From Pseudomonas tensinigenes (lineage in GTDB: Bacteria; Pseudomonadota; Gammaproteobacteria; Pseudomonadales; Pseudomonadaceae), in the NCBI RefSeq assembly GCF_014268445.2, contig NZ_CP077089.1:186001-250000 (forward strand): a DNA stretch of 64,000 nucleotides, given 5' to 3'. How positions within the stretch are numbered: position 1 is the stretch's first letter; every line of letters begins with the position of its first letter. A program made the position numbers and the translations under genes. Shown piece by piece: positions 32,044-51,615 of the stretch. The notes beneath the pieces were generated by a model. It searched no databases, was not told the origin of the DNA, and saw only the letters and a program-made list of their open reading frames with translations.

Positions 32044-32916
32044 TCAGCGGATGTGTGCGAGCACACCTTGAAGCTCATCGAGCGAGTTATAACCGATCAC
32101 CAACTGCCCCTTTCCCTTCTTGCCGTGGCGAATCTGCACCGCAGAGCCTAGGCGCTCGGCCAGACGCTGTTCGAGACGGGCGATATCCGGGTCGGGTTTG
32201 GTCGCTTCCACAGGCTCCGGTTTGCCACTCAACCACTGGCGAACCAGTGCCTCAGTTTGGCGCACGGTGAGACCGCGTGCGACAACATGTCGCGCCCCTT
32301 CAACCTGTTGATTGTCCGGCAGACCGAGCAAAGCACGGGCATGACCCATTTCCAGGTCGCCGTGAGACAACATGGTCTTGATGACTTCCGGCAGTGCAAT
32401 AAGCCGCAACAGGTTAGCCACAGTGACGCGGGACTTACCCACAGCCTCGGCAACTTGCTGCTGAGTCAGTTGGAATTCCTGCTGCAAACGCTGCAGGGCC
32501 ACCGCTTCTTCGATCGGATTGAGGTCTTCGCGCTGGATGTTCTCGATCAGCGCAATGGCGATTGCGGTTTCATCCGGCACATCGCGGACCATCGCCGGGA
32601 TGGTTTCCTGCCCGGCTTGCTGGCTCGCGCGCCAGCGACGTTCACCGGCGATGATCTCGAAGCGGCCACCGCCAATTGGGCGCACCACGATCGGCTGCAT
32701 CACGCCTTGCGCCTTGATCGACGCTGCCAGTTCTTCCAGCGCCTGCGGATCCATGTCGCGGCGCGGCTGGTATTTGCCGCGCTGCAGCAGATCCAACGGC
32801 AAGTGCTGCAGCTCGCGGGTGTCAGCTTGCGCCGCTTGTTCTTCCAGCGCGCTGACGGTCGGACCACTCAGCAGTGCATCCAGTCCACGTCCGAGACCTC
32901 GTTTCTTGACGGCCAT
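32044..32916 (-). CDS. parB: Chromosome partitioning protein ParB (CTPase, parS-binding)
   Basis: 290 aa. The N-terminal ParB domain has the CTP-binding GERRWRA motif near 92-98 and ENIQREDLNPIEEA near 125-138. The central HTH (QQVAEAVGKSRVTVANLLRL) reads parS, and the C-terminal dimer domain closes the protein. It loads at parS and slides along DNA; a perfect parS is in recF 16 kb away. It starts 9 bases after parA. Confidence 0.96.
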   Translation of the reverse strand: MAVKKRGLGRGLDALLSGPTVSALEEQAAQADTRELQHLPLDLLQRGKYQPRRDMDPQALEELAASIKAQGVMQPIVVRPIGGGRFEIIAGERRWRASQQAGQETIPAMVRDVPDETAIAIALIENIQREDLNPIEEAVALQRLQQEFQLTQQQVAEAVGKSRVTVANLLRLIALPEVIKTMLSHGDLEMGHARALLGLPDNQQVEGARHVVARGLTVRQTEALVRQWLSGKPEPVEATKPDPDIARLEQRLAERLGSAVQIRHGKKGKGQLVIGYNSLDELQGVLAHIR

Positions 32917-32925
32917 GGGGATTCC

Positions 32926-33723
32926 TTAAGTTGCCTGAGCGGCGGCAATGCGTGAGTTTTTGCGCTGACGACGAACCATCTCGCCGGCCAGGGCCAGATA
33001 AGCCAAGGCGCCGCGCGATTGCTTGTCGTAGGCCAGCGCCGGCATGCCGTAGCTCGGCGCTTCGGCCAGACGGATATTGCGCGGGATCACCGTGTCGTAG
33101 AGTTGCTCGCCGAAGTGTTCCTTGAGCTGCGCCGAAACGTCATTCATCAAGCTCAGGCGCGGGTCGTACATGGTCCGCAGCAAACCTTCGACTTTCAGGT
33201 TCGGATTGAGCAGTTCGGCGATGCGCTTGATGTTATCCACAAGGTCGCTGAGACCTTCGAGCGCAAAGTACTCGCACTGCATGGGGATAATTACCCCGTC
33301 AGCAGCGACCAGTGCGTTCAGCGTGAGCATCGACAGCGACGGCGGGCAGTCGATCAAAATGTAATCGTAGTTTTCACGGATCGGCGCCAGCGCGCTGCGC
33401 AGACGACTTTCCTTCATCTGCATTTCCAGCAGTACCACTTCAGCCGCCGTCAGATCGCGGTTGGCCGGCAGCAGTTGATAACCGCCATGCTCGGAATAGT
33501 GCATGGCCTGGGCCAGATCGCATTCGCCGATCAGCAGGTCGTAGACCGAGTTTTCCAGGCCGTGTTTATCCACACCGCTACCCATGGTGGCGTTGCCCTG
33601 TGGATCGAGATCGATCAACAGCACCCGCCGCTTGGTCGCGACCAGGGATGCTGCGAGGTTGATGCAGGTGGTGGTCTTGCCCACACCACCCTTTTGGTTC
33701 GCTATCGCGAATACCTTAGCCAT
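32926..33723 (-). CDS. parA: Chromosome partitioning ATPase ParA (Soj)
   Basis: 265 aa from ATG 33723 (MAKVFAIANQKGGVGKTT). The deviant Walker A KGGVGKTT is near 11-18, with DLDPQGNATMGSG near 40 and IDCPPSL near 122. An upstream in-frame start would add six residues that are not part of the family. It drives separation of origin regions with ParB and lies between rsmG and parB, the usual order. Confidence 0.96.
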   Translation of the reverse strand: MAKVFAIANQKGGVGKTTTCINLAASLVATKRRVLLIDLDPQGNATMGSGVDKHGLENSVYDLLIGECDLAQAMHYSEHGGYQLLPANRDLTAAEVVLLEMQMKESRLRSALAPIRENYDYILIDCPPSLSMLTLNALVAADGVIIPMQCEYFALEGLSDLVDNIKRIAELLNPNLKVEGLLRTMYDPRLSLMNDVSAQLKEHFGEQLYDTVIPRNIRLAEAPSYGMPALAYDKQSRGALAYLALAGEMVRRQRKNSRIAAAQAT

Positions 33724-33741
33724 TCTTGCTTGTGTTCCCAA

Positions 33742-34386
33742 TCATGCCGTGCGGCGCAGTATCAGCAGATGGCGTTGGCCTTGGCAACCGGGTACGGCCA
33801 GGGCGTGTTCGCTATCGAGTTTGAAGTCTGCCGGCAATGCTACCAGCTCATCGGCCGGATGAACGCCCTTCATTGCCAGCCAGCGTGTATCGGCATCGCC
33901 GAGATGGCGAGTCCAGTTGGTGAAGTTCTCCATGCTGCTGAACGCCCGGGAAATGATCCCGTTGAACGGCTCTGCAGGCTGGAAAGCTTCGACACGACTG
34001 TGGATAACTTGCAGGTTATCCAGTTTGAGTTCGAGTTTGACTTGAGTCAGGAAGCGGGTTTTCTTGCCATTGCTGTCCAGACAGGTCACTTGCGAGTCCG
34101 GATACAGGATCGCCAACGGGATCCCCGGCATGCCGCCGCCGCTGCCGACGTCGAGCCAACGACCGTTTTCGATGAACGACATCACGCTGAGACTATCGAG
34201 CAAGTGCCGCGAAACCATTTCGTCCGGATCACGCACCGCGGTCAGGTTGTAGGCCTGGTTCCATTTGATCAACAGGGCCAGATAACCCAACAGCAACTCG
34301 TGCTGGGTTTCAGTGAGATTGACACCGAGCTCGCGGGCTCCTGTGGATAACTCTTCGGCGTGTTGCGAAGTGACCTTAGAACTCAA
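33742..34386 (-). CDS. rsmG: 16S rRNA (guanine527-N7)-methyltransferase
   Basis: 214 aa. SAM-binding motif [16 protein letters not shown] near 77-92 and the preceding [11 protein letters not shown] region match RsmG/GidB. It methylates G527 of 16S rRNA; its loss gives low-level streptomycin resistance in other bacteria. It overlaps mnmG by 4 bases (ATGA) and forms one transcript with it and the par genes. Confidence 0.95.
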
Positions 34387-36284
34387 GCGCTTTGCTCCAA
34401 CTGACGGCCCGCGCCGCGTTTTTTCAAATGAATCATCAACAGCGAAATCGCTGCCGGGGTCACACCCGGGATCCGCGAAGCCTGGCCCAACGTCTCTGGT
34501 CGAGTCGCGCCGAGCTTGCTCTGGATCTCCTTGGAGAGACCGGAAATGTTGGTGTAATCGATATCCACAGGCAATTTGGTGTCTTCACTGGCGCGCAGAC
34601 GGGCGATTTCGTCCTGTTGACGGTCGATGTAACCGGCGTATTTGGTCTTGATTTCAACCTGCTCGGCGACCTGTGGATCTTCGGCGCCGTTGCCGGTCAC
34701 TTCGACCAGACCAGCGTAGTCGATTTCCGGACGACTCAAGAGGTTGAGCAAGTTGTATTCGTGGGTCAGCGGCGTGCCGAATTTCTCGGCAATCGCATCG
34801 CCCTGCTGCGTGTTCGGGCGAACCCAGGTGCTTTTCAGGCGCTGCTCTTCGAGTTCAATGCTTTCGCGTTTCTTGCAGAAGGCCGCCCAACGCGCGTCAT
34901 CGACCAGACCGAGCTCGCGACCTTTTTCGGTCAGACGCAGGTCGGCGTTGTCCTCGCGCAGGATCAGGCGGTACTCGGCACGGGAAGTGAACATGCGGTA
35001 CGGCTCTTGGGTACCGAGGGTGATCAGGTCGTCGACCAATACACCGATGTACGCTTCATCGCGACGCGGGCACCAGGCTTCTTTGCCCTTGGCGCGCAGT
35101 GCGGCGTTGGCGCCAGCGAGCAAACCTTGAGCGCCGGCTTCTTCGTAACCGGTGGTGCCGTTGATTTGCCCGGCGAAGAACAGACCGCCGATGACTTTGG
35201 TTTCGAGGCTGTACTTCAGATCGCGCGGATCGAAGTAGTCGTACTCGATCGCATAACCCGGACGCACGATGTGTGCGTTTTCCATGCCGCGAATCGATTG
35301 CACGATCTGCAATTGCACGTCGAACGGCAAGCTTGTGGATATCCCGTTCGGATACAGCTCATGGGTGGTCAAACCTTCCGGTTCGATAAACACCTGATGG
35401 CTTTCCTTGTCGGCAAAGCGGTGAATCTTGTCTTCGATCGACGGGCAATAGCGCGGGCCGATGCCTTCGATTTCACCGGCAGCGGAATACATCGGCGAAC
35501 GATCGAGGTTCGCGGCAATGATTTCGTGGGTGCGGGCGTTGGTGTGAGTAATCCAGCAACTGACCTGGCGTGGATGCTGTTCCTTGTTGCCCATGAACGA
35601 CATCACCGGGATCGGCGTATCGCCTGGTTGCTCGGTCATCACCGAGAAATCCACAGACTTGCCGTCGATACGCGGTGGTGTGCCGGTTTTCAGGCGACCG
35701 ACACGCAGTGGCAGTTCACGCAAACGGTGAGCCAGGGCGATCGACGGCGGATCACCGGCGCGGCCACCGGAAAAATTCTGCAAACCGATGTGGATAAGTC
35801 CACCAAGGAAGGTACCGGTGGTCAACACCACGGAATCGGCGAAGAAGCGCAGACCCATTTGCGTGACAACACCACGGACCTGTTCCTGCTCGACGATCAG
35901 GTCATCAGCCGCTTGTTGAAATATCCACAGGTTCGGTTGGTTTTCGAGGATTTCGCGGACAGCGGCTTTGTACAGAATCCGGTCGGCTTGCGCACGAGTC
36001 GCCCGTACGGCTGGGCCTTTGCGGCTGTTCAACACACGAAACTGGATGCCACCCAAATCGGTAGCCGTGGCCATCGCGCCGCCGAGGGCATCGATTTCCT
36101 TGACCAGATGGCTTTTGCCAATGCCACCGATGGCCGGGTTGCAACTCATGGCACCGAGGGTTTCCACGTTATGCGTCAGCAACAGGGTTTTTGCCCCCAT
36201 ACGTGCTGAGGCCAGTGCTGCCTCGGTACCGGCATGACCGCCGCCGATGACGATCACTTCAAAACGGGAAGGGAAATCCACCAC
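34383..36284 (-). CDS. mnmG: tRNA uridine-34 carboxymethylaminomethyl modification enzyme, FAD subunit
   Basis: 633 aa. FAD-binding [14 protein letters not shown] at about 11-24, [14 protein letters not shown] near 44-57 (active Cys region), GGRAGDPPS near 170 and RPGYAIEYD near 345. With MnmE it modifies the wobble uridine of several tRNAs. It is first in the mnmG-rsmG-parA-parB transcript, with the DnaA-box region directly upstream, so its transcription runs away from that region. Confidence 0.97.
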
Positions 36285-36853
36285 GCACCTCGTGCCTGCT
36301 TAAGTAGGTAATTCAGGAATAGTTTGAGATCAGGTTTCTGGACCTGGTCGACAAGTATAGGGACTTCGCCCTTCCTAAAGAACCCTTTGCACAAAATTTA
36401 ACCAGCTGTGGAGAACTCGAGGTTAAAAGAATAAAAAAGAGAGAAATTTATAAAACCTTTGTTTTTATGTTTATTCTTACTGAGCACGCTTTCTGTGGAT
36501 AGATTGCTACAGGCCTTTATATTCAATATGTACAGAGTTTCAAAACCCTGTGCTCATGTGCCAGTGAGGCCCTTGGATAACCGGTGTAAGCCTGTGGATG
36601 AAAGGGGTGGTTATCCACAGAGTGGGTTATATCCAGTTTTCAGGCCCTGTTATCAACTGCCCTTAGTGGCAGTTATTCACAGGGCTTAATCCACAGAAAA
36701 TCGACCAAATGGCTTTTTCCGGGCGCAAAAAAAACCGCCATCGAAAGATCGGTGACGACCAGGAAGCCGATGGAGGGATGTGAAAGGGCTATTGTGAGAG
36801 AACGTAACAGAGGCTAATAATAGCCATTATCATTAACTCGTCAGTTTCTCCCC
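36285..36853. other. mnmG-side origin-like region with DnaA boxes
   Basis: 569 bases without a gene. An AT-rich block (about 36420-36480) is followed by DnaA-box-like sequences: TGTGGATAG 36494, TGTGGATGA 36593, TTATCCACA 36611 (perfect), TTATTCACA 36673 and TAATCCACA 36687. TGTACAGAG, TGGATAACC and TGCCCTTAG occur in the same order as in the dnaA-side oriC. Pseudomonas chromosomes are known to carry two autonomously replicating segments, one near gidA (mnmG), and this looks like that one. A TATACT -10 element for mnmG can be read at 36354-36359 on the minus strand, with a poor -35. Confidence 0.65.
36792..36835 (+). promoter_or_regulatory. Iron-regulated promoter with Fur box upstream of the fecI-type gene
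   Basis: TTGTGA (36792-36797), 18 bases, AATAAT (36816-36821). Overlapping the -10 is TAATAATAGCCATTATCATT (36815-36834), a close match to the Fur consensus GATAATGATTATCATTATC. Under iron-replete conditions Fur would shut off the sigma factor gene 20 bases downstream. The gene's ATG has no purine-rich ribosome binding site. Confidence 0.6.
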
Positions 36854-37360
36854 ATGTCCCCACCCGCCCACCACGCTGCGATCGAGCAAATCTACGAGCA
36901 ACACCATTCGTGGCTATATGGATGGCTCAAGGGCAAATTGCATAACGCCTGCGATGCTGCGGATGTCGCGCATGACACCTTCGTGCGGATCCTCGCGGCA
37001 CGGAATGCCGCGCAGATTCGCGAACCGCGGGATTATCTGGCGACCATTGCACGCGGCCTCGTCATTGATCGCTATAGAAGACAGGCCATCGAAGTCGCCT
37101 ACTTGCAGACCTTGGCTGCTCGACCGGAAGCCACCGCCATCAGCGAAGAAGACAAGGCACTGATCATCGAAACCCTGATCGCTGTGGATAAAGCCTTGGC
37201 CGGTCTGGGCGCGCGAACCCGGCAGATCTTTATGCTCTCGCAGATCGACGGCCTGACTTATCAACAGATCGCTGTGCAGTTGAAGGTTTCCCTGACCACA
37301 GTAAAGAAGCACATGATCCGCGCTTTGACGGAATGTGCCCTGATCATGGCGCAGCGCTGA
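36854..37360 (+). CDS. FecI-type ECF sigma factor
   Basis: 168 aa. Sigma region 2 (ADVAHDTFVRILA near 36-48) and region 4 HTH (LTYQQIAVQLKVSLTTVKKH near 134-153). It would direct RNA polymerase to the receptor gene downstream when the cognate siderophore is bound. A Fur box lies at its promoter. The start ATG follows TTTCTCCCC, with no Shine-Dalgarno sequence. Its stop overlaps the fecR start (TGATG). The cassette lies between mnmG and mnmE, where P. aeruginosa has only a small gene. Confidence 0.88.
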   Translation: MSPPAHHAAIEQIYEQHHSWLYGWLKGKLHNACDAADVAHDTFVRILAARNAAQIREPRDYLATIARGLVIDRYRRQAIEVAYLQTLAARPEATAISEEDKALIIETLIAVDKALAGLGARTRQIFMLSQIDGLTYQQIAVQLKVSLTTVKKHMIRALTECALIMAQR

Positions 37361-38307
37361 TGGCCATCGCCCCCAACCGCAAAGTGTTCGAAGCCGCTGC
37401 CGCTTGGTACGTGCAGTTTCAGGCAGATCCGCCGACGCTCGCCGAACAAAAAGCCTGGCAGCTGTGGATAGATAGCGATCCAGCGCACTTGGCGGCGTGG
37501 AACCAGATGGAACAATTGCAGCGTCATTTCGGCACTCTGCCGCAGGATTTGAAACGTCGCGCGCTGAATACCGGCCAGCAACGGCGTCAGGTACTGAAGC
37601 TGTTGCTGCTCGCGACCGGGACAGGGTTCCTCGGTTGGAACGCTCAGCAACATACATCCCTGGGGAATGTCTGGGCCGACTACAAAACCGGCGTTGGCCA
37701 GCGTCGTAGCCTTTCATTGGCGGATGGCAGCCAGATCCAGCTCAACACCGATACCGCCATCGATGTGTCTTTCGACGCCGCACAGCGCCTGATTCGCCTG
37801 CGCTCGGGTGAGATTCTCATTGAAACCGGCAAGCTTGGCGATCAGCGGCCGTTTTTTGTCGAGACCCACGACGGCCGGATTCAAGCGTTGGGTACGCGTT
37901 TTTCGGTGCATCAGCTGTCGGGCTCGACGCGGGTCGGCGTGCTGGAAGATCGGGTCAGCGTGCAACCCGCTGATCCATCAACGGCCGCGATGATCTTGAA
38001 GGCAGGCGAAGGTGCTGACTTCGATAGTCGGCATATCGGACGCCTTCTTCCATTTGAATCCTCAGCAGTGGCGTGGACCAACGGCCAGTTGATTGTGCTC
38101 GATGCACGGTTGGGTGAGGTGATCGACGAGTTGGGGCGTTATCGCAGCGGTGTTCTGCACTGCGACAGCCGCGCCCGGGATCTGCGGGTATCCGGCACCT
38201 TTCGGCTCGATTCCACTGATGCCGTGCTGGCCAACCTTCAGGCCTCGTTACCGATCAACGTCCGCTACTTCACCCGTTACTGGGTCTCGATCAGCCACAA
38301 CGTCTGA
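37360..38307 (+). CDS. FecR-type anti-sigma / signal transfer protein
   Basis: 315 aa from ATG 37360, overlapping the sigma factor stop; the open frame extends 9 codons upstream into it. The N-terminal DUF4880-type segment (AAAAWYVQFQADPPT..W..WI.SDPAHLAAW) binds the sigma factor in the cytoplasm. One membrane segment is near 78-95, then a periplasmic FecR domain (DGSQIQLNTDTAIDV near 125-140) and a C-terminal STN-like tail that contacts the receptor. Length is typical. Confidence 0.88.
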   Translation: MAIAPNRKVFEAAAAWYVQFQADPPTLAEQKAWQLWIDSDPAHLAAWNQMEQLQRHFGTLPQDLKRRALNTGQQRRQVLKLLLLATGTGFLGWNAQQHTSLGNVWADYKTGVGQRRSLSLADGSQIQLNTDTAIDVSFDAAQRLIRLRSGEILIETGKLGDQRPFFVETHDGRIQALGTRFSVHQLSGSTRVGVLEDRVSVQPADPSTAAMILKAGEGADFDSRHIGRLLPFESSAVAWTNGQLIVLDARLGEVIDELGRYRSGVLHCDSRARDLRVSGTFRLDSTDAVLANLQASLPINVRYFTRYWVSISHNV

Positions 38308-38322
38308 TCGAAAATCACCTGG

Positions 38323-38351
38323 GGAAAAATAAATCGAAAACAGGGTTATCT
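38323..38351 (+). promoter_or_regulatory. Possible ECF-sigma promoter of the TonB receptor gene
   Basis: GGAAAA (38323-38328) with 17 bases to TTATCT (38346-38351). FecI-group promoters often carry a GGAAAT-like -35. It lies in the 119-base gap before the receptor gene, where a separate inducible promoter is expected. This is pattern matching only. Confidence 0.3.
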
Positions 38352-38426
38352 TTTTTTGCCCTGACCCGGCCCTACAGGTAATCGCGATAAACGCGGCTCT
38401 TCGCCACCTTCAGGGCTTATCCACAC

Positions 38427-40862
38427 ATGCGTCTTCCCACGTTCCGTCAGCGTTTTTCTCACCACTGCATTGCCTACAGCCTACTGATGACCAGCGCCGC
38501 GCCTTGCCTGGTAATGACCAACAACGCCTTCGCGGCGACGGCCGCCCAGCGTTACACCATTGCTGCCGGCCCGCTTGATAATGCTTTGAGCCAATTCGCC
38601 TCCGCAGCAAACGTGATTCTGTCGTTTTCGCCGCAACAGACCAGCCGTTTACGCAGTGCGGGACTGAACGGCAATTTCACCGTCGACCAGGGATTCGCTC
38701 AACTGCTGCAAGGCTCGGGGTTGCAAGCCGTACCGCAGGCGCCGGGCAGTTACATTCTGCAGGCGTTGCCCAATGGTGACGCGCTGGAACTGGCCCCGAC
38801 CAACATCAACGGGCAATTGGCCAATCCGATGAATCTGGATTACGCCGCCGACGTTGGCTACAAGGCGCAGAACAGCCGGATCGGTACGAAAACCAGCACG
38901 GCGTTGTCGGAAACGCCGCGCTCGGTGTCAGTCGTAACCGCGCAACGCATGAAAGATCAGAAATCTCAGACGCTCACCGAGGTGCTTGGCTACGTGCCGG
39001 GGATCTTTGCTCCTCCGTTTGCCGCCGGCGACAGTCTGGCCGGCGATCTGTTTTTCATTCGCGGTTTCAACGCCACCGATTACGGCTACGGCCTGCTGCG
39101 CGATGGACTCCGTGTGCAAGGCAACCGTTATGACACCAGTACCGAACCTTATGGACTTGAGCGGGTGGAAATTTTCCGTGGCCCGTCCTCATTGCTGTAT
39201 GGGGAAAACGCCCCCGGCGGCCTGGTCAATCTGGTCAGCAAACGGCCAACCGCTGCACCGCAAGGCGAAGTGCAACTCGGCTATGGCTCGAACAACCGAC
39301 GGCAAATCGGTGTTGATGTGTCGGGGCCACTCAACGACAGCGGCAACATTCTCGGGCGTGTAGTGATGCTCGGCCGCAAGTCCGACACCCAGACCGATCA
39401 CGTCCCGGATGACCGCCTCTACATCGCCCCTTCGCTGACCCTGAATTTTGACGATTTCAACACCTTGACCCTGCTGGCCAACTACCAGAAGGATCACACC
39501 AATATGGAACTTGGCCTACCGGCCGCCGGCACCTTGCTGACAAACCCCAATGGCAAGTTATCCAAAGGCACCATGCTCGGCGACCCGGACTGGAACACCT
39601 TCGAACGGGAAACCTGGAGCAGCGGTTACGAGTTCAGCCACTCCTTCAACGACGACTGGCAGTTCCGGCAGAACTCGCGCTACATGCAGTCGCGCATCAC
39701 CCGCCACGAAACCTGGCCAGGCAACCTCAACAATGCGGGCTTCGGCACGCGCCTGAACATGACCGCCTACGATCGCTTCAACAAATCGATGGTGTACTCG
39801 CTGGATAACCAACTGGAAGGCAAATTCCAGCTCGGTAGGCTGGAAAACACCGTGCTGTTCGGCGCCAGCTACGATCGCACTTCGTTCAATCAGGACTGGA
39901 ATGCCGGCATCGTCGGGCCGATCGATATCTACAACCCGGTTTACCTGCGCGATCCCACCACCCCGATCGCGGTGCAAAACACGCTGCTCGAGCAACAGAT
40001 GAAAGGTGTTTATGCACAGATCCAAAGCAAATATGACAACTGGTTGTTCTTGCTCGGTGGGCGCCAGGACTGGGTCGACAGTGATTTTCGCGACAAGGTG
40101 GCCAAGGGCAGCAACATCAGTTCCGAGGACAAGAAATTCACCTATCAGGGCGGGGTGATGTACCAGTTCGACAACGGCATGACGCCGTATGTCAGCTATT
40201 CCACCTCATTCGTGCCGGTGCAGCAGATTTCCAATGCCGGCACGCCACTCGACCCGATCACCAGCAGCCAATATGAAGTGGGCCTGAAGTACGAACCGAT
40301 TGGCTGGGACACCGCGTTCACCGCTTCGGTGTATGACCTGCGCAAAAAGGACGACACCTACTTCGACTCGACCACGTCGACCTATCGCCAGGTCGGCGAA
40401 AGCCGTTCCAAAGGCGTGGAACTGGAACTCAACAGCAATCTGACCCAGAACCTCAACGTGACTGCGGCTTATACCTACACCGATGCGCGGATTACCAAGG
40501 ATGCCGCGACGTCATTGGTCAAAGGCCATCAAATGACCGGGGTACCACGTAATCAGGCTTCGGTCTGGACGAAATACCGATTCCTCGATGGCGACTTGAA
40601 AGGTCTGTACGTCGGCGGTGGTGTGCGTTACTTCGATAGTGCCTTCGCTTACACCTCGTCTACTCTGTACGGGAAGCTGGATGCCGGCGATGTCACGTTG
40701 GTGGATGCGGCCATCGGTTATCAGATCGACACGCACTGGAGCGTCGACCTGAACGCGAAAAACTTGTTCGACGAGGAGTATGTGTCGGGATGCAACGATG
40801 CCGGCCGCTGCTACTGGGGTGAAGACCGCACCTTGCTCGGTACGGTTTCTTACAACTGGTAA
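38427..40862 (+). CDS. TonB-dependent ferric siderophore receptor with N-terminal signalling domain
   Basis: 811 aa. Signal peptide (cleavage near AFAA, residue 36), then an STN signalling domain (about 42-110; RYTIAAGPLDNALSQFA), plug (about 150-260; ETPRSVSVVTAQRM) and a 22-strand barrel ending in an aromatic Trp. The C-terminal CNDAGRCYWGEDRTLLGTVS is close to ferrichrome/hydroxamate receptors (FhuA/FiuA type), so a hydroxamate xenosiderophore is the best guess. It is the regulated target of the FecI/FecR pair. A TTATCCACA box ends one base before its ATG. Confidence 0.85.
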   Translation: MRLPTFRQRFSHHCIAYSLLMTSAAPCLVMTNNAFAATAAQRYTIAAGPLDNALSQFASAANVILSFSPQQTSRLRSAGLNGNFTVDQGFAQLLQGSGLQAVPQAPGSYILQALPNGDALELAPTNINGQLANPMNLDYAADVGYKAQNSRIGTKTSTALSETPRSVSVVTAQRMKDQKSQTLTEVLGYVPGIFAPPFAAGDSLAGDLFFIRGFNATDYGYGLLRDGLRVQGNRYDTSTEPYGLERVEIFRGPSSLLYGENAPGGLVNLVSKRPTAAPQGEVQLGYGSNNRRQIGVDVSGPLNDSGNILGRVVMLGRKSDTQTDHVPDDRLYIAPSLTLNFDDFNTLTLLANYQKDHTNMELGLPAAGTLLTNPNGKLSKGTMLGDPDWNTFERETWSSGYEFSHSFNDDWQFRQNSRYMQSRITRHETWPGNLNNAGFGTRLNMTAYDRFNKSMVYSLDNQLEGKFQLGRLENTVLFGASYDRTSFNQDWNAGIVGPIDIYNPVYLRDPTTPIAVQNTLLEQQMKGVYAQIQSKYDNWLFLLGGRQDWVDSDFRDKVAKGSNISSEDKKFTYQGGVMYQFDNGMTPYVSYSTSFVPVQQISNAGTPLDPITSSQYEVGLKYEPIGWDTAFTASVYDLRKKDDTYFDSTTSTYRQVGESRSKGVELELNSNLTQNLNVTAAYTYTDARITKDAATSLVKGHQMTGVPRNQASVWTKYRFLDGDLKGLYVGGGVRYFDSAFAYTSSTLYGKLDAGDVTLVDAAIGYQIDTHWSVDLNAKNLFDEEYVSGCNDAGRCYWGEDRTLLGTVSYNW

Positions 40863-40866
40863 AACG

Positions 40867-40905
40867 AAAAAGGGGCTGTGGATAAATTCTCACAGCCCCC
40901 TTTTT
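40867..40905. terminator. Bidirectional terminator between receptor gene and mnmE
   Basis: AAAAAGGGGCTGTG (40867-40880), loop GATAAATTCT, then CACAGCCCCCTTTTT (40891-40905), with one extra C. It serves the two converging genes. The perfect TGTGGATAA (40877-40885) spans stem and loop. Confidence 0.85.
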
Positions 40906-40906
40906 G

Positions 40907-42277
40907 TTATTTGCCGATGCAGAAGCTGGAAAAGATTCTTCCCAGCAGATCATCAGAGCTGAAAGCCCCGGTGATTTCACCAAGAGAATGCTGGGCCTGA
41001 CGCAAATCTTCGGCGAGCAATTCACCGGCACCCGCCAATGTCAGCTGCGCACGGCCGTGTTCCAGCGCGGCACTGGCATGGCGCAGAGCCTCGAGATGGC
41101 GGCGACGTGCGCTGAAGCTGCTTTCCGACGTTTGCTCGTAACCCATGCAAGCCTTGAGATGGTCACGCAGCAAGTCCAGCCCTTCACCGGCCGACTTGGC
41201 GCTAAGGCTGATCGTCACATGTCCGTCTTCACTGGTTTCCAGGGCAATTGCTTCGCCGGTCAGATCCGCTTTGTTGCGAATCAGGGTGACTTTCGCCGGA
41301 TCCGGACGGGTTTCGAGGAATTCCGGCCACAACGCAAACGGGTCCAGCGCCTCCGGGGCGGTCGCATCGACCACCAACAACACCCGATCGGCTTCACCAA
41401 TTGCCTTCAATGCCCGTTCGACACCGATCTTTTCCACATGATCGTCGGTATCACGCAAACCTGCGGTATCGACAACGTGCAACGGCATGCCGTCGATGTG
41501 GATATGTTCACGCAGAATATCGCGAGTGGTGCCGGCAATCTCCGTCACGATCGCCGCTTCGCGACCGGCCAGCGCATTCAACAGACTGGACTTGCCGGCA
41601 TTCGGACGGCCGGCAATCACCACGGTCATGCCATCGCGCAACAACGCACCCTGCCCGGCTTCACGCAGTACTGTGGATAACTCATCGCGCACTTTGTCGA
41701 GCATGCTCAACACATGGCCATCGGCGAGGAAGTCGATTTCTTCTTCCGGAAAGTCGATGGCGGCTTCGACGTAGATGCGCAGACCGATCAGTTGTTCGGT
41801 CAAGTTATGCACACGCTGGGAAAAAGCGCCTTGCAAAGAACGCAGAGCATTGCGTGCAGCCTGTGCCGAACTGGCTTCGATCAAATCGGCAATCGCCTCG
41901 GCCTGGGCCAGGTCGAGTTTGTCATTGAGGAAGGCTCGTTCACTGAATTCACCGGGACGGGCCAAACGACAACCCAACTCCAGGCAACGCTTGAGCAGCA
42001 TGTCCAGCACGATCGGGCCGCCATGTCCCTGCAATTCCAGCACGTCTTCGCCGGTAAACGAGTTCGGTCCCGGGAAATACAGCGCCAGACCTTCATCGAG
42101 CACTTGCTGGTCGTCACTGAAAAACGGCCCGTAATGGGCGTAACGCGGTTTCAGTTCGCGGCCGCTGATAGCTTTGGCTGCAACGCTGGCCAGCGGTCCG
42201 GAAATACGGACGATGCCCACACCGCCGCGACCTTGAGCGGTGGCGACGGCGGCGATGGTTTCACGAGGTGTGCTCAT
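40907..42277 (-). CDS. mnmE: tRNA modification GTPase MnmE
   Basis: 456 aa from ATG 42277 ([19 protein letters not shown]); an in-frame TTG six codons earlier is less likely. The N-terminal folate-binding domain is followed by the G domain: GRPNAGKSS near 224, GTTRD near 248, DTAGLRD near 270 and NKAD near 334. The C-terminal FCIGK supplies the catalytic Cys. Partner of MnmG in wobble-uridine modification. It is the last gene of the rpmH-rnpA-yidD-yidC cluster direction, but with a terminator before it. Confidence 0.97.
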
Positions 42278-42310
42278 AAACCGGAATCCAGACAAAAGTG
42301 GCAGATAGCA

Positions 42311-42333
42311 AAACGCCCCACGAGGGGGCGTTC
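42311..42333 (-). terminator. Terminator or attenuator between yidC and mnmE
   Basis: AACGCCCC (42312-42319), loop ACGAG, GGGGCGTT (42325-42332). On the minus strand the stem is followed by TTTT. It lies 27 bases after the yidC stop, so mnmE may need its own promoter or read-through. Confidence 0.65.
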
Positions 42334-42358
42334 TGAGTGGTGTTATCCACAGTGCAAG

Positions 42359-44041
42359 TTACGCCTCGGCTTTTTTCGTCGCCGCTTCGATCTTACGCGT
42401 GATGTACCACTGTTGTGCAATCGACAGGCAGTTGTTCACAACCCAGTACAGCACCAGACCTGCCGGGAACCACAGGAAGAAGAAGGTGAAGATGATTGGC
42501 ATCATTTTCATGACCTTCGCCTGCATCGGATCCGGAGGAGTCGGGTTCAGCTGCTGCTGGATGAACATGGTTGCGCCCATGATGATCGGCAGAATGAAGA
42601 ACGGATCCTTGATCGACAGGTCAGTGATCCACAGCATGAACGGCGCCTGGCGCATTTCCACGCTTTCCAGCAGAACCCAGTACAGCGACAGGAAAACCGG
42701 CATCTGCACGAGGATTGGCAAGCAGCCGCCCAGCGGATTGATCTTCTCTTTCTTGTACAGCTCCATCATGGCTTGCGACATTTTTTGCCGGTCATCGCCA
42801 TGTTGCTCTTTCAGAGCAGCCAGTTTCGGCGCAACGGCACGCATGCGCGCCATCGATTTGTAGCTGGCAGCCGACAGAGGGAAGAAAATACCCTTGATCA
42901 GCATGGTCAGGAAAATGATCGACCAGCCCCAGTTACCGACAATGGCGTGGATGTGTTGCAGCAGCCAGAAGATTGGCTGGGCAATGAACCACAGAATGCC
43001 GTAGTCGACGGTCAGTTCCAGACCTGGGGACAACTCTTTCAGCACAGCCTGGCTTTTCGGGCCGGCGTACAGCACAGCGCTGGTTTCAACTTTGGCACCC
43101 GGAGCAGCGGTCAGTGTTGGACCGGTGTAACCGATGATGTAGTTGCCTTTGCTGTCTTTACGGGTCTGGACGATGTTGTTTTCGCCCTTCGCAGGAATCC
43201 ACGCAGTCACGAAGTAGTGTTGCAGCCAGGCTACCCAACCACCGGTGACGGTTTCTTTCAGTTGCGCCTTGTCCATGTCCTTCATGGACACTTTTTTGTA
43301 CGGCTCCGAACTTGTCCACAGGGCGGCGCCCAGGTAAGTCGCGGTGCCAGTAGCGGTTGTGGACGAAGGATCAGCGCTAGCATCGCGCTTCAACTGCGCG
43401 AACATCGCGCCATTCCAGGGCTGAGCGCTCTGGTTATCCACAATGTAGGAAACGGCTACGTCATACAGGCCGCGTTTCAGAGTGAAACGCTTGATGTAAT
43501 TGACGCCGTCCTTGCTGAACTTCAGGTCGACGACCAGTTGGTCCTGACCGTCAGCCAGTTGATAAGTCTTCTTCTCCGAGGAGTAGACCGGACGACCGGC
43601 CGGATTTGCATCCGGACCATTGGTGCCGATCAGACCGCTTTGTGCCAGATAAACACGTTCGCCGCCGTTATCGAACAGCTGGAACGGAACATCAGGACGA
43701 TCCTGACGACGTGGATACAAAGGCAAGGTCAGTTGAGCAACATCGCCACCTTGTGGATCGATCGCGAGATCGAGCACGTCGGTTTTGATCTGGATCAGAT
43801 CCTTGCTGGCGGCTACCGGTGTTTCGGCAGGTGCGCTGGTATCGCTAGCGGCGCGCGGAATATCGTCACTGGCGGCAGCATTATTGCCAGTGGCGGTGTC
43901 CGGCAAACCGGATGTAGTCGTACTGGAAGCAACATTCTGAGTCGGCAGGGCAGCCTGGCCATAGTCCTGGTTCCATTTAAGAACCATAACGTAGGACACG
44001 ATTGCCAGGGCGACGATCAGGATCGTGCGTTTGATATCCAT
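42359..44041 (-). CDS. yidC: Membrane protein insertase YidC
   Basis: 560 aa. N-terminal membrane helix (TILIVALAIVSYVMVLKW), a large periplasmic beta domain (about 60-340), then the five-helix insertase core from about 350, with the hydrophilic-groove Arg region and KINPLGGCLPILVQMP near 450. It inserts membrane proteins alone or with SecYEG; Fo subunit c is a classic client. It is 2 bases after yidD. Confidence 0.97.
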   Translation of the reverse strand: MDIKRTILIVALAIVSYVMVLKWNQDYGQAALPTQNVASSTTTSGLPDTATGNNAAASDDIPRAASDTSAPAETPVAASKDLIQIKTDVLDLAIDPQGGDVAQLTLPLYPRRQDRPDVPFQLFDNGGERVYLAQSGLIGTNGPDANPAGRPVYSSEKKTYQLADGQDQLVVDLKFSKDGVNYIKRFTLKRGLYDVAVSYIVDNQSAQPWNGAMFAQLKRDASADPSSTTATGTATYLGAALWTSSEPYKKVSMKDMDKAQLKETVTGGWVAWLQHYFVTAWIPAKGENNIVQTRKDSKGNYIIGYTGPTLTAAPGAKVETSAVLYAGPKSQAVLKELSPGLELTVDYGILWFIAQPIFWLLQHIHAIVGNWGWSIIFLTMLIKGIFFPLSAASYKSMARMRAVAPKLAALKEQHGDDRQKMSQAMMELYKKEKINPLGGCLPILVQMPVFLSLYWVLLESVEMRQAPFMLWITDLSIKDPFFILPIIMGATMFIQQQLNPTPPDPMQAKVMKMMPIIFTFFFLWFPAGLVLYWVVNNCLSIAQQWYITRKIEAATKKAEA

Positions 44042-44043
44042 GA

Positions 44044-44289
44044 TTACTCGGCCATCGAAGAAGAACGGGAGGTAGGGATAGGTGGAACCGGGTCATAACC
44101 ACCGGGATTCCACGGATGACAGCGACCTAAACGACGAAAGGTCAGCCAGCCACCGCGCAGAAGGCCATGATTTTCAATGGCTTCATACGCGTAGCAGGAA
44201 CAACTGGGGTAGAAACGACAGTGGCTGGCCATCAAAGGACTAATGGCATAGCGATAAAACTGGATCGGAACGAGGGCCAGTTTACGCAT
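44044..44289 (-). CDS. yidD: Membrane protein insertion efficiency factor
   Basis: 81 aa. Contains the conserved [15 protein letters not shown] block (about 24-38) and [17 protein letters not shown], the YidD/DUF37 signature with its cysteines. Small, peripheral at the inner membrane, helps YidC-dependent insertion. Overlaps rnpA by 8 bases. Confidence 0.95.
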
Positions 44290-44683
44290 CGGTACTGTCT
44301 ACCCCTACAGTTTCGGTTTTGACTTCCGGAACCGGCTTGCTGCGTGCCAGGCGTTTCCAGAGCTTGCCGAAATGCTGAATCAATTCGGGGTTTTCTACAT
44401 CGCCCAGACCTTTGCGCGCGACTATAACGATATCCCAGCCGACCAGTGAATCCTGGTGCAGACGGAATGATTCGCGCATCAAACGCTTGAGGCGATTGCG
44501 CTCAACGGAGAGCTTTACGCTCTTTTTCCCGATAACCAGCCCGAGACGGGGGTGATCGAGATCGTTGTTGCGTGCAAGGAGCAGGAGATTTTTCCCCGGA
44601 ACCTTGCCGGTAGGGGAGTCAAAGACTGCCTTGAAATGCCGGGGGGTAAGCAGACGCTTTTCCCGACTGAAGTCCTGACTCAC
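44282..44683 (-). CDS. rnpA: Ribonuclease P protein component
   Basis: 133 aa from GTG 44683 ([12 protein letters not shown]). The frame is open a further 32 codons, but those overlap rpmH and are not family-like. GGAG directly abuts this GTG, so the exact start is uncertain. The RNR signature region ([22 protein letters not shown]) is at about 57-78. With the rnpB RNA, not in this window, it matures tRNA 5' ends. Confidence 0.9.
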
Positions 44684-44699
44684 CTCCAGTACCGGATTA

Positions 44700-44834
44700 T
44701 CAAACTGCCAGACGCGCACGACCTTTGGCGCGACGACGCGACAGGACTGCGCGGCCGTTCTTGGTAGCCATGCGAGCACGGAAACCGTGGGTACGAGCGC
44801 GTTTGATAGTGCTTGGTTGGAAAGTACGTTTCAT
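44700..44834 (-). CDS. rpmH: 50S ribosomal protein L34
   Basis: 44 aa ([20 protein letters not shown]...ending ARLAV), exactly the expected L34. ATG at 44832-44834. First gene of the rpmH-rnpA-yidD-yidC transcript with a strong sigma70 promoter about 60 bases upstream. Standard neighbour of dnaA/oriC. Confidence 0.97.
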
Positions 44835-44895
44835 TGTCGTGTTACCTGGTTCGTCCACAACGGGCCGGAATGGCCCCCGTTTTAAGAGACCGGGG

Positions 44896-44924
44896 ATTCT
44901 AGAGAAAGCAAGCCTTCAGGTCAA
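44896..44924 (-). promoter_or_regulatory. Sigma70 promoter of rpmH-rnpA
   Basis: On the minus strand TTGACC (44919-44924), 17 bases, TAGAAT (44896-44901): five of six matches in each box. Position about 60 bases before the rpmH ATG. Confidence 0.8.
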
Positions 44925-44939
44925 TTTCCAACCAACGTT

Positions 44940-45345
44940 TCCTTATAAATAGATCTCGAGGTGTTCTTTGCCTGATCACCTGCTCGCCATACATAAAAAT
45001 AAAGAAGGGAATTATTTAAAGCTTTTCTGTAAAGCTTATAAAAGCTAGGCAAGCCTTCTTCTGTGGATAAGTGACACCGGCCCATGTTTTACCTGATGTA
45101 CAGAGAATGACAACTACAGTGGAAAACCGTGTTCAGCCTGTGCTGCGCCATCGGATAACCTGTGCGTGGAATGGGCTGTTATCCACAGGTAGGTTATCCA
45201 CCGAGTTCAACCCCTACTTGTCCAGTGCCCTTAGAGGCGGTTATCCACAGAGCTTATTCACACACCGTTGGTCGCCTTTTTCTGATTTAACGCATTGATA
45301 AATCATGCTCACCCGGCAACCTGCATGTGGATAAGTGGACGGCTC
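44940..45345. other. oriC: Chromosomal replication origin oriC (dnaA side)
   Basis: The 567-base gap between rpmH and dnaA (44835-45401) carries an AT-rich block at about 44990-45055, a likely unwinding element, and DnaA boxes: TGTGGATAA 45062, TTATCCACA 45179, TTATCCACC 45194, TTATCCACA 45241, TTATTCACA 45254 and TGTGGATAA 45326. Four are perfect 9-mers. Location next to dnaA and box number are as in other Pseudomonas. DnaA binding would open the AT-rich block for DnaB loading. Confidence 0.92.
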
Positions 45346-45401: not shown

Positions 45402-46931
45402 GTGTCAGTGGAACTTTGGCAGCAGTGCGTGGAGCTTTTGCGCGAGGAGCTGCCTGCCCAACAATTCAACACCTGGATCCGTCCACTACAGGTCGAAGCC
45501 GAAGGCGACGAGTTGCGCGTCTACGCACCGAACCGTTTTGTGCTGGACTGGGTCAACGAAAAGTATCTGGGCCGCGTCCTTGAACTGCTGGATGAGCACG
45601 GCAACGGCATGGCGCCTGCGCTTTCCTTATTGATAGGCAGCAAACGCAGTTCCGCTCCGCGTGCCGCACCGAACGCGCCGCTTGCAGCCGCGCAGGTTTC
45701 CCAGCAGGCCCAGGCAAATGCCACGCCTGTGAGTACGCCGGCACCCACCCAGACGTCAGCCCCGGCAGCCAAGCGTTCAACGCAGAAAAGCCCTGAAGTC
45801 AGCGATGAACCGTCTCGTGACAGTTTCGACCCGATGTCCGGCGCTGCTTCGCAACAGGCCCCGGTCCGTGCCGAACAGCGGACTGTGCAGGTCGAAGGTG
45901 CGCTCAAGCACACCAGTTACCTGAATCGCACCTTTACCTTTGAAAACTTCGTCGAAGGTAAATCCAACCAGCTCGCCCGCGCGGCGGCCTGGCAAGTGGC
46001 GGACAACCCCAAGCACGGCTACAACCCACTGTTCCTTTATGGTGGTGTCGGCCTGGGTAAAACCCACTTGATGCACGCGGTGGGTAACCACCTATTAAAG
46101 AAGAACCCGAATGCCAAGGTCGTGTACCTGCATTCCGAGCGTTTCGTCGCCGACATGGTCAAGGCGCTGCAACTGAACGCGATCAACGAGTTCAAGCGTT
46201 TCTACCGTTCGGTGGATGCCTTGCTGATCGACGACATTCAGTTCTTTGCTCGCAAGGAGCGCTCGCAGGAAGAGTTTTTCCACACCTTCAACGCCCTGCT
46301 TGAAGGTGGCCAGCAGGTCATTCTCACCAGTGACCGCTACCCGAAAGAAATCGAAGGCCTGGAAGAGCGCCTCAAATCCCGCTTCGGCTGGGGCCTGACG
46401 GTTGCCGTCGAGCCGCCGGAACTGGAAACCCGCGTCGCGATCTTGATGAAGAAGGCCGACCAGGCCAAAGTCGAGTTGCCGCACGACGCTGCGTTCTTCA
46501 TTGCCCAGCGTATTCGCTCCAACGTCCGAGAGCTGGAAGGCGCGCTGAAACGCGTGATTGCCCACTCGCACTTCATGGGCCGCGACATCACTATCGAGCT
46601 GATTCGCGAATCCCTGAAAGACCTGTTGGCGCTGCAAGACAAACTGGTCTCTGTGGATAACATTCAGCGCACCGTCGCCGAGTACTACAAGATCAAGATC
46701 TCGGACTTGTTGTCCAAGCGCCGTTCGCGCTCGGTAGCGCGTCCGCGTCAGGTGGCCATGGCGTTGTCCAAGGAACTGACCAACCATAGCCTGCCGGAAA
46801 TCGGCGACGTGTTTGGCGGCCGTGACCACACCACCGTGTTGCACGCCTGCCGCAAGATCAACGAACTTAAGGAATCCGACGCGGACATCCGCGAGGACTA
46901 CAAGAACCTGCTGCGTACACTGACCACTTGA
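45402..46931 (+). CDS. dnaA: Chromosomal replication initiator DnaA
   Basis: 509 aa with GTG start (45402) after AGGGGAT. Domain I at 1-85, a long Ala/Pro/Gln-rich linker (about 85-175), AAA+ domain with [13 protein letters not shown] near 210-222 and the IDDIQF Walker B region, and domain IV with [12 protein letters not shown] near 474-485 that reads DnaA boxes. First gene of dnaA-dnaN-recF-gyrB. A perfect DnaA box lies inside it at 46652. Confidence 0.98.

Positions 46932-48088: not shown

Positions 48089-51615
<3,527 letters not shown>

What the first reader, a model, noticed from the sequence alone, without database searches (positions are those of the whole stretch)
36420..45345. Two paralogous origin-like regions flanking mnmG and dnaA
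Seen: both regions have an AT-rich block then DnaA boxes. Anchors appear in the same order in both: TGTACAGAG (36530 / 45098), GGATAACC (36574 / 45152), TTATCCACAG with a second half-box nearby (36611 / 45179), and TGCCCTTAG-GGC-GTTAT-CACAG-GCTTA (36658-36687 / 45227-45256). The mnmG-side copy has decayed boxes (TGTGGATAG, TGTGGATGA, TAATCCACA). Known: Pseudomonas chromosomes carry two autonomously replicating segments. Inference: they arose by duplication, and the mnmG copy is now weak.
Basis: partly seen in the sequence, partly recalled or inferred. Interest (0 to 1): 0.7.

Follow-up and report, generated by a model that had tools for sequence, protein, structure and literature searches.

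The report
Twin replication origins at mnmG and dnaA
This Pseudomonas-type chromosome carries two related origin-like modules about 8.6 kb apart, one beside dnaA and one beside mnmG where E. coli keeps its origin, and comparison with relatives suggests that the supposedly decayed mnmG module is a conserved element and perhaps a working kind of origin rather than a relic.

Summary
36427-36695 (mnmG side, "M") and 44995-45264 (dnaA side, "D") align end to end well beyond their DnaA boxes and share box spacings (best kept: 117 and 179 bp from the first box). Duplication is supported; decay is not. M is in all 41 genus genomes read, is about as conserved as D, and its "bad" first box is the commonest state. 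M sits at the address and in the orientation of E. coli oriC. Outside Pseudomonadaceae, of 55 genomes of the order with both sides readable, an mnmG-type module is at mnmG only in 37, at dnaA only in 12, at both in 3, at neither in 3; this cross-family match depends on the boxes, and dnaA sides without it often still bear boxes. Pseudomonadaceae mostly keep both. One unnamed genus of the family (6 of 6 genomes) lost D, and in the one genome tested GC skew turns near mnmG, not at dnaA 35 kb away. Best reading: M is a conserved subordinate origin at an old alternative address. Two self-replicating segments in P. aeruginosa are already in print; paralogy, spacing and single-copy relatives are what is added. 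Whether M fires in Pseudomonas is untested.

The parts
34383..36284 (-). mnmG (gidA); its start codon faces the M element
   Evidence: Pfam GIDA 571 bits
36427..36695 (+). M element: mnmG-side origin-like module
   Evidence: alignment to D 145 vs shuffle max 46; M side hit by the D profile in 41 of 41 genus genomes
36427..36482 (.). AT-rich block of M (candidate unwinding element), 79% AT on average in 37 genomes
   Evidence: mean pairwise identity 0.743 in 37 genomes, against 0.269 in the sequence beyond M
36494..36502 (.). M first box (offset 0), TGTGGATAG; 9th base G in 70 of 116 genomes
36593..36601 (.). M box at offset +99, TGTGGATGA
   Evidence: box (2 mismatches or fewer) at this offset in 102 of 117 genomes
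36611..36619 (.). M box at offset +117, perfect TTATCCACA
   Evidence: 112 of 117 genomes
36673..36681 (.). M box at offset +179, TTATTCACA
   Evidence: 112 of 117 genomes
36687..36695 (.). M box at offset +193, TAATCCACA
   Evidence: 42 of 117 genomes
36854..40859 (+). ECF sigma factor, FecR and TonB-dependent receptor genes, between M and mnmE
   Evidence: Pfam; mnmG-mnmE gap 387 to 8876 bp among 39 other genus genomes
40907..42277 (-). mnmE
   Evidence: Pfam MnmE_helical, TrmE_N
42359..44041 (-). yidC
   Evidence: Pfam YidC_periplas, 60KD_IMP
44995..45264 (+). D element: dnaA-side origin module, homologous to M
   Evidence: D side hit by the M profile in 37 of 37 genus genomes
44995..45052 (.). 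AT-rich block of D; TAG lies 13 bases before the first box
   Evidence: TAG at spacer 13 in 52 of 110 D against 18 of 116 M
45062..45070 (.). D first box (offset 0), perfect TGTGGATAA
45179..45187 (.). D box at offset +117, perfect
   Evidence: 104 of 116 genomes
45194..45202 (.). D box at offset +132, TTATCCACC
   Evidence: 89 of 116 genomes
45241..45249 (.). D box at offset +179, perfect
   Evidence: 102 of 116 genomes
45254..45262 (.). D box at offset +192, TTATTCACA
   Evidence: 70 of 116 genomes
45326..45334 (.). dnaA-proximal perfect box outside the shared spacing; a single box near dnaA remains where D is lost
45402..46931 (+). dnaA
   Evidence: Pfam Bac_DnaA 254 bits

Best explanation
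M and D are two copies of one DnaA-dependent origin module: an AT-rich unwinding block, a box beside it, and a box array at fixed spacing. D is probably the main oriC. M occupies an old alternative origin address (upstream of mnmG, the place of E. coli oriC, same orientation) and is kept by selection as a subordinate origin: DnaA would load on the same spacing and could open the AT-rich block, but less readily (first box ends in G rather than A in most genomes, fewer consensus boxes, the TAG element 13 bases before the box mostly absent), so M is usually copied passively by a fork from D 8.6 kb away. Where D is lost, M-type modules appear to serve alone. Shown by sequence: homology within Pseudomonas, shared spacing, conservation, distribution, loss of D in one genus, and the skew turning point near mnmG in one genome of it. 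Inferred: DnaA binding, unwinding, firing, hierarchy and direction of duplication.
For: Homology beyond boxes: the profile of one side scores the other at 105-108 bits on average, against 5 (highest 33.8) with boxes kept and the rest locally shuffled; 37 of 37 genomes above all 20 of their own nulls, both ways. Family-wide: of 80 named loci, 69 of 69 readable M sides are hit by the D profile and 73 of 73 readable Pseudomonadaceae D sides by the M profile. Same spacing to the base at +117 and +179 in over 100 of 116-117 genomes on both sides. Conservation of M including its AT block. Address: E. coli oriC begins about 110 bp upstream of mnmG and matches a profile made from mnmG-side regions of other Pseudomonadales at 22.5 bits (own null maximum 6.2), while E. 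coli rpmH-dnaA does not. Single-copy relatives: genus g132, D lost and M kept in 6 of 6; genus g127, M lost in 3 of 3, D kept in the 2 whose D could be read. In G189 of g132 the third-position skew minimum is at 417 kb (bootstrap 5-95%: 408.5-428.3 kb), M at about 415.7 kb; 0 of 1000 bootstraps lie nearer dnaA at 381 kb. 14 of its 73 perfect DnaA boxes crowd 404.9-418.4 kb, one is at dnaA.
Against: No replication, DnaA-binding or unwinding data for this organism. The skew test is one genome, 120 kb, with mechanically called ORFs; plain skew has its minimum near 405 kb and a turn at 405.5 kb fits the third-position data slightly better than one at M (1.2 against 2.9 log units below the best place, 417.7 kb; dnaA 31), so the turn is placed only to about 10 kb. 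Skew shows past use. g132 M differs from Pseudomonas M. A review says only one P. aeruginosa origin is essential and the other may once have been functional but no longer used (PMC4403523). Cross-family matches need the boxes: with boxes masked at 1 mismatch, 4 of 41 genus M and 4 of 37 genus D stay above 10 bits; at 2 mismatches none.
Confidence: 0.55

Rival explanations
1. M is a decayed relic of an origin duplication with no present role.
For: M has fewer consensus boxes than D in the window; the second P. aeruginosa origin is reported non-essential (PMC4403523). One genus of the family lost M altogether (g127, 3 of 3).
Against: Present in 59 of 59 genus genomes, own included; AT block 0.743 against D 0.687, first box 0.774 against 0.708, central boxes 0.754 against 0.681, right box 0.796 against 0.842, while sequence beyond M is at 0.269 and beside D at 0.289 (left) and 0.44 (right); +117 and +179 boxes at the exact base in 112 of 117 M.
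Confidence: 0.1
2. M is now a DnaA-binding control site (initiator sink, DnaA reactivation site, or mnmG promoter control) and no longer opens.
For: M and D lie in a wide field of perfect DnaA boxes: 152 in the genome, reversed control 18; 30 in this window. M lies upstream of the mnmG start.
Against: A sink would not need the AT-rich block, which is among the most conserved parts of M; an M-type module appears to be the origin in g132.
Confidence: 0.2
3. M and D are two halves of one split origin that work together through DNA looping, as in H. pylori or B. subtilis.
For: Both are kept across most of the family. M and D of one genome are more alike than M and D of different genomes (103.6 against 90.6, sd 1.5, 0 of 2000 permutations; shuffled controls give an excess of 1.0 and 1.3). 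In E. coli rnhA mutants after UV an origin zone bordering dnaA depends on DnaA and, for full induction, on oriC (PMC12000880, passages).
Against: Distance from mnmG start to dnaA start varies from 4.9 to 12.7 kb in the fetched family genomes; each side has an AT block and an array; single-copy genera exist. Parallel changes only modestly exceed crossed ones: nearest pairs 193 to 155 (p 0.047), GC-neutral 75 to 57 (p 0.14); random pairs 512 to 359 (p 2e-7), GC-neutral 207 to 161 (p 0.019).
Confidence: 0.1
4. M and D are not copies; both converged because the same DnaA needs the same layout.
For: Cross-family similarity is lost when boxes are masked.
Against: Within Pseudomonas, non-box sequence carries most of the score; E. 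coli DnaA works on a different inner box spacing (0/106/141/180, from box places).
Confidence: 0.05

Closest known systems
Pseudomonas oriC (rpmH-dnaA) and the second autonomously replicating segment of P. aeruginosa (Yee and Smith 1990; Smith 1991; Jiang 2006; known here only through passages and citations in PMC4403523, PMC3642087 and PMC4285127)
   Same: D is at the published oriC place beside dnaA (PMC3642087, passage). P. aeruginosa PA7 has the same pair: its M side scores 115 bits with the genus M profile and 94 with the D profile.
   Different: The original papers could not be read, so whether their second segment is M is not verified. Paralogy, shared spacing and distribution were not in the passages seen.
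E. coli oriC (mnmG-mioC)
   Same: Same address as M and same orientation (that its 13-mers face mnmG is recalled); first-to-last box span 180 bp against 179.
   Different: Inner box spacing differs; E. coli rpmH-dnaA has one box at 1 mismatch or fewer and no profile match. A review describes the E. coli origin as translocated away from dnaA (PMC5295017, passage).
Bipartite origins (H. pylori, B. subtilis)
   Same: Two DnaA-box clusters near dnaA.
   Different: Per PMC4285127 (passages) only one half carries the unwinding region and the spacer is usually dnaA; here both have an AT-rich block and other genes lie between.
BUS / DnaA-trio origin core (PMC8287927, passages)
   Same: D has TAG 13 bases before the first box in 52 of 110 genomes; 13 is the commonest published spacer.
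   Different: M has it in 18 of 116; runs of three or more NAN triplets are rare in both (8 of 116 M, 2 of 110 D).

Membership tests
DnaA-dependent chromosomal origin module (oriC type) | cluster of DnaA boxes | tested here: met
   6 boxes (1 mismatch or fewer) within 300 bp at each side; shuffled windows 1-2
DnaA-dependent chromosomal origin module (oriC type) | AT-rich block beside the box array | tested here: met
   79% AT (M) and 71% AT (D), conserved; unwinding itself not testable
DnaA-dependent chromosomal origin module (oriC type) | replication starts there | not testable with these tools
   indirect only: skew turns near mnmG in one relative that lacks D; M and D are too close to separate in this genome
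E. coli-type oriC (mnmG address) | position and orientation upstream of mnmG | tested here: met
E. coli-type oriC (mnmG address) | E. coli box spacing | tested here: not met
   0/106/141/180 in E. coli against 0/99/117/179; overall span nearly equal
BUS (box, spacer, DnaA-trios) | three or more NAN triplets at spacer 8-16 | tested here: not met
   8 of 116 M and 2 of 110 D have a run of three or more
bipartite origin | only one half bears the unwinding region | tested here: inconclusive
   both sides have a conserved AT-rich block; whether both unwind is unknown
bipartite origin | both halves needed for opening | not testable with these tools
   single-copy genera argue against need in the wider family
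second ARS of P. aeruginosa | same sequence as the published segment | not tested
   original papers not held

The most novel reading that the evidence does not exclude
The mnmG and dnaA intergenic regions are two exchangeable addresses for one origin module. Lineages of Pseudomonadales move their chromosome origin between them through a twin-origin stage, which Pseudomonadaceae and halomonads have kept as a stable, partly co-evolving pair; E. coli is then not a bacterium with an oddly translocated origin but one that sits at the mnmG address. Both copies in Pseudomonas can fire. (Lowered from 0.4 in my draft, because one search showed that the cross-family match is lost when boxes are masked and that most dnaA sides scored as lacking the module still bear DnaA boxes.)
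Probability: 0.35. Interest if true: 0.8.

Novelty: new variant of a known kind. Interest (0 to 1): 0.6.

Why it matters
Bacteria are taught as one chromosome, one origin, and how an essential origin can change place in evolution is open. A conserved pair of homologous origin modules, with relatives that keep only one or only the other, gives a natural series for testing origin switching, initiator competition and why a second origin is kept. It also warns origin-finding tools: a published Pseudomonas genus motif, TTCTGTGGATAGA (PMC7174414, passage), matches the mnmG-side first box of this window, not the dnaA-side one.

Tried and rejected
Superseded by my own check: the first order-wide profiles were made from about 460 bp upstream of mnmG, which in compact genomes runs into the end of mnmE; some mnmG-side scores were mnmE coding sequence. 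Counts from them were dropped and redone with regions cut at mnmE: both/M only/D only/neither became 3/37/12/3 instead of 6/39/8/2.

Limits: the profile comes from mnmG-side regions chosen for having two or more boxes, so 'absent at dnaA' means no match to this module, not no boxes; 30 of the 37 mnmG-only genomes still have two or more boxes near dnaA, and 4 of the 12 dnaA-only ones have two or more near mnmG. A reverse profile made from dnaA sides also held rpmH and dnaA leader sequence and was not redone. 61 of 269 regions have a boxes-kept null above 10 bits (highest 28.7), so each region had to beat its own 10 nulls; eleven positives are weak (12-20 bits), among them L172 D, L366 M, L184 D (13.0 against null 10.7), L192 D and L317 D.

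GC skew within the window cannot separate places 8.6 kb apart. A rank test for co-evolution over 93 genomes was not decisive; permutation tests replaced it. The tree of M and D largely separates genus M from genus D but is poorly resolved deeper (28 of 74 inner branches open) and does not root the duplication. L172 looked like an independent duplication; part of that match is AT-rich low complexity, so it is left open. The odd box TGTGGGTAA is in both copies of L136 and G214 (genus g119), but not shared in G205, G239 or L312, and it occurs in 11 of 120 M and 2 of 120 D overall: at most suggestive of conversion. Genus g117 is inconclusive (205 bp of D readable); G184 of g127 has 7 bp of D; G197 (g125) has no M match once mnmE is cut.

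Literature searches: (10 of 10). No listed title or passage seen treats the paralogy or its distribution, but I read passages of few papers, most subscription journals are not held, and the key papers (Yee and Smith 1990, Jiang 2006) could not be read, so novelty of each part is uncertain. Ogasawara and Yoshikawa 1992 is recalled as discussing DnaA-box clusters near both genes; not read.
Full report
WHAT WAS CLAIMED. Two paralogous origin-like regions flank mnmG and dnaA; they arose by duplication; the mnmG copy is decayed and weak.

IS IT THERE. Yes. The anchors are in place within one base. 36427-36695 (M) and 44995-45264 (D) align end to end (145 against at most 46 in 2000 shuffles). Because AT-rich DNA and DnaA boxes could by themselves give an alignment, I kept the boxes and shuffled everything else only within 20-bp windows: 0 of 3000 reached the score (max 95), and with profiles over 37 genus genomes the cross-match falls from 105-108 bits to 5 on average (highest null 33.8). 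The similarity is therefore not just boxes plus local composition. BLAST with D over the own genome (6.62 Mb, one contig) finds only D and M.

ANATOMY. Both modules read in the same direction: AT-rich block, first box, then an array. Measured from the first box and allowing 2 mismatches: M (117 genomes) has boxes at +99 in 102, +117 in 112, +133 in 63, +179 in 112, +193 in 42; D (116 of 117 with a first box) has +99 in 35, +117 in 104, +132 in 89, +179 in 102, +192 in 70. The median over all offsets is 0. M-specific: +78 (79) and +156 (90). D-specific: +55/56 (33 and 27). D also has a box just upstream of dnaA (45326) outside this spacing.

NOT DECAYED. M was found in 59 of 59 genus genomes by DNA search, own genome included. 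I fetched stretches from 40 of the 58 other genus genomes and added the window; 37 of these 41 had both sides, and in all 37 M against D exceeded 60 shuffles. The D profile hits 41 of 41 M; the M profile hits 37 of 37 D. Among 80 named loci (75 taken as Pseudomonadaceae by title, one of them titled only gamma proteobacterium), all 69 with a readable M and 73 with a readable D cross-match, including P. putida, P. syringae, P. fluorescens, Stutzerimonas, Halopseudomonas and Atopomonas; eleven loci lacked mnmG in the stretch. P. aeruginosa PA7 and A. vinelandii M sides were fetched separately and match. In the same 37 genomes M is about as conserved as D: AT block 0.743 and 0.687, first box 0.774 and 0.708, central boxes 0.754 and 0.681, right box 0.796 and 0.842, the stretches between boxes 0.61-0.62 and 0.59-0.62; sequence beyond M 0.269, left of D 0.289, right of D 0.44. 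The 'decayed' TGTGGATAG is the commonest M state (G 70, A 42 of 116 placed of 127), while D has A in 101 of 110 placed of 123; TAG at spacer 13 is in 18 of 116 M and 52 of 110 D. So M is a conserved variant with a probably weaker first box and opening element.

ADDRESS. E. coli oriC lies about 110 bp upstream of mnmG with its AT-rich side towards mnmG (recalled), the same place and direction as M. I built a profile from mnmG-side regions of 41 genomes of 28 other families of the order, cut at mnmE, and scored every genome with its own family left out and with a boxes-kept null. Without any Pseudomonadaceae seed it finds M in 41 of 41 and D in 37 of 37 genus genomes, M in 18 of 20 and D in 14 of 18 of the wider family set. 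E. coli oriC gets 22.5 bits (null maximum 6.2), E. coli rpmH-dnaA -2.3. Outside Pseudomonadaceae I fetched 58 of the 73 order genomes returned; of the 55 with both sides readable, 37 have the module at mnmG only, 12 at dnaA only, 3 at both and 3 at neither (Fisher p 4e-7; one genome per family, 37 families: 22/10/2/3, p 4e-5). Five halomonads have it at both (one D weak, 14.1 bits; their family code could not be matched, so their being left out of the profile is not guaranteed). Cautions: families are not fully independent; the threshold of 10 bits is mine; the profile is built from mnmG sides, and 30 of the 37 mnmG-only genomes still have two or more boxes near dnaA; and the match needs the boxes: masked at 1 mismatch, 4 of 41 genus M and 4 of 37 genus D stay above 10 bits, at 2 mismatches none. 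So across families what is shared is mainly a box layout with its immediate context; within Pseudomonas it is the whole sequence. Whether the ancestor had one copy or two with later losses is not settled.

NATURAL DELETIONS. Inside Pseudomonadaceae, genus g132 (6 of 6 genomes) and the one genome of g121 keep M but have lost D: rpmH is no longer within 1.5 kb of dnaA, which keeps one box. Genus g127 lost M in 3 of 3 and keeps D in the 2 genomes whose D could be read. In G189 (g132) the third-position skew minimum falls at 417 kb beside M (bootstrap 5-95%: 408.5-428.3 kb); dnaA at 381 kb is 31 log units worse than the best place, 405.5 kb is 1.2 and M itself 2.9 worse. Plain skew turns near 405 kb. 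14 of its 73 perfect DnaA boxes lie at 404.9-418.4 kb, a single one at dnaA. This is the strongest hint that an M-type module can be the only origin, but it is one genome and one kind of evidence.

CO-EVOLUTION. M and D of the same genome are more alike than expected from other pairings (103.6 against 90.6, sd 1.5; controls for local composition give an excess of 1.0-1.3). Parallel changes outnumber crossed ones (193:155 in nearest pairs, 512:359 in random pairs), less clearly when only GC-neutral changes are used (75:57, p 0.14; 207:161, p 0.019). Gene conversion or shared selection by the cell's own DnaA could explain it.

MECHANISM. Most likely D is the main oriC and M a subordinate origin that DnaA can assemble on; because D is 8.6 kb away, M is normally copied by a fork from D. 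That M binds DnaA, opens and fires in this organism is inference. A secondary source reports that two P. aeruginosa origins replicate autonomously, with only one essential (PMC4403523, passages). An E. coli study reports the mirror case, an origin zone bordering dnaA that depends on DnaA and, for full induction, on oriC in rnhA mutants after UV (PMC12000880, passages).

VERDICT. Real, conserved and informative; twin origins in Pseudomonas are known in outline, the decay reading is not supported, and the address-switching history is the new, testable part.

Noticed in passing
window 15015-63317 (30 sites); genome-wide: Perfect DnaA boxes are strongly enriched: 152 in the genome (reversed-sequence control 18), 30 in this 64-kb window (shuffle mean 0.14), some inside genes (parA, gidB, mnmG). 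The tool listed 100 of 152 places; only 12 of those lie between 1.6 and 5.5 Mb of the 6.62-Mb chromosome. This looks like a chromosome-scale box field centred on the origin.
   Followed up: partly
window 36854-40859: ECF sigma factor, FecR and TonB-dependent receptor genes sit between the mnmG-side module and mnmE; the mnmG-mnmE gap ranges from 387 to 8876 bp in 39 other genus genomes, so the place beside M looks like an insertion hotspot.
   Followed up: partly
window 49140-49155: Exact parS consensus (recalled) TGTTCCACGTGGAACA, about 4 kb from D and 12 kb from M; parB and parA genes at 32047-33741.
   Followed up: no
G189:C1:341285-342815 and G230:C1:2844037-2844810: In the genus that lost D, a second tight cluster of perfect DnaA boxes (7 in 1.5 kb; 4 in 0.8 kb) lies about 73-82 kb from M, possibly a DnaA sink or control site.
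   Followed up: no
L136, L391 and L408 (G214): In two genomes of genus g119 both origin copies bear the unusual first box TGTGGGTAA, as if one copy had overwritten the other; two other genomes of that genus and L312 do not share it.
   Followed up: partly
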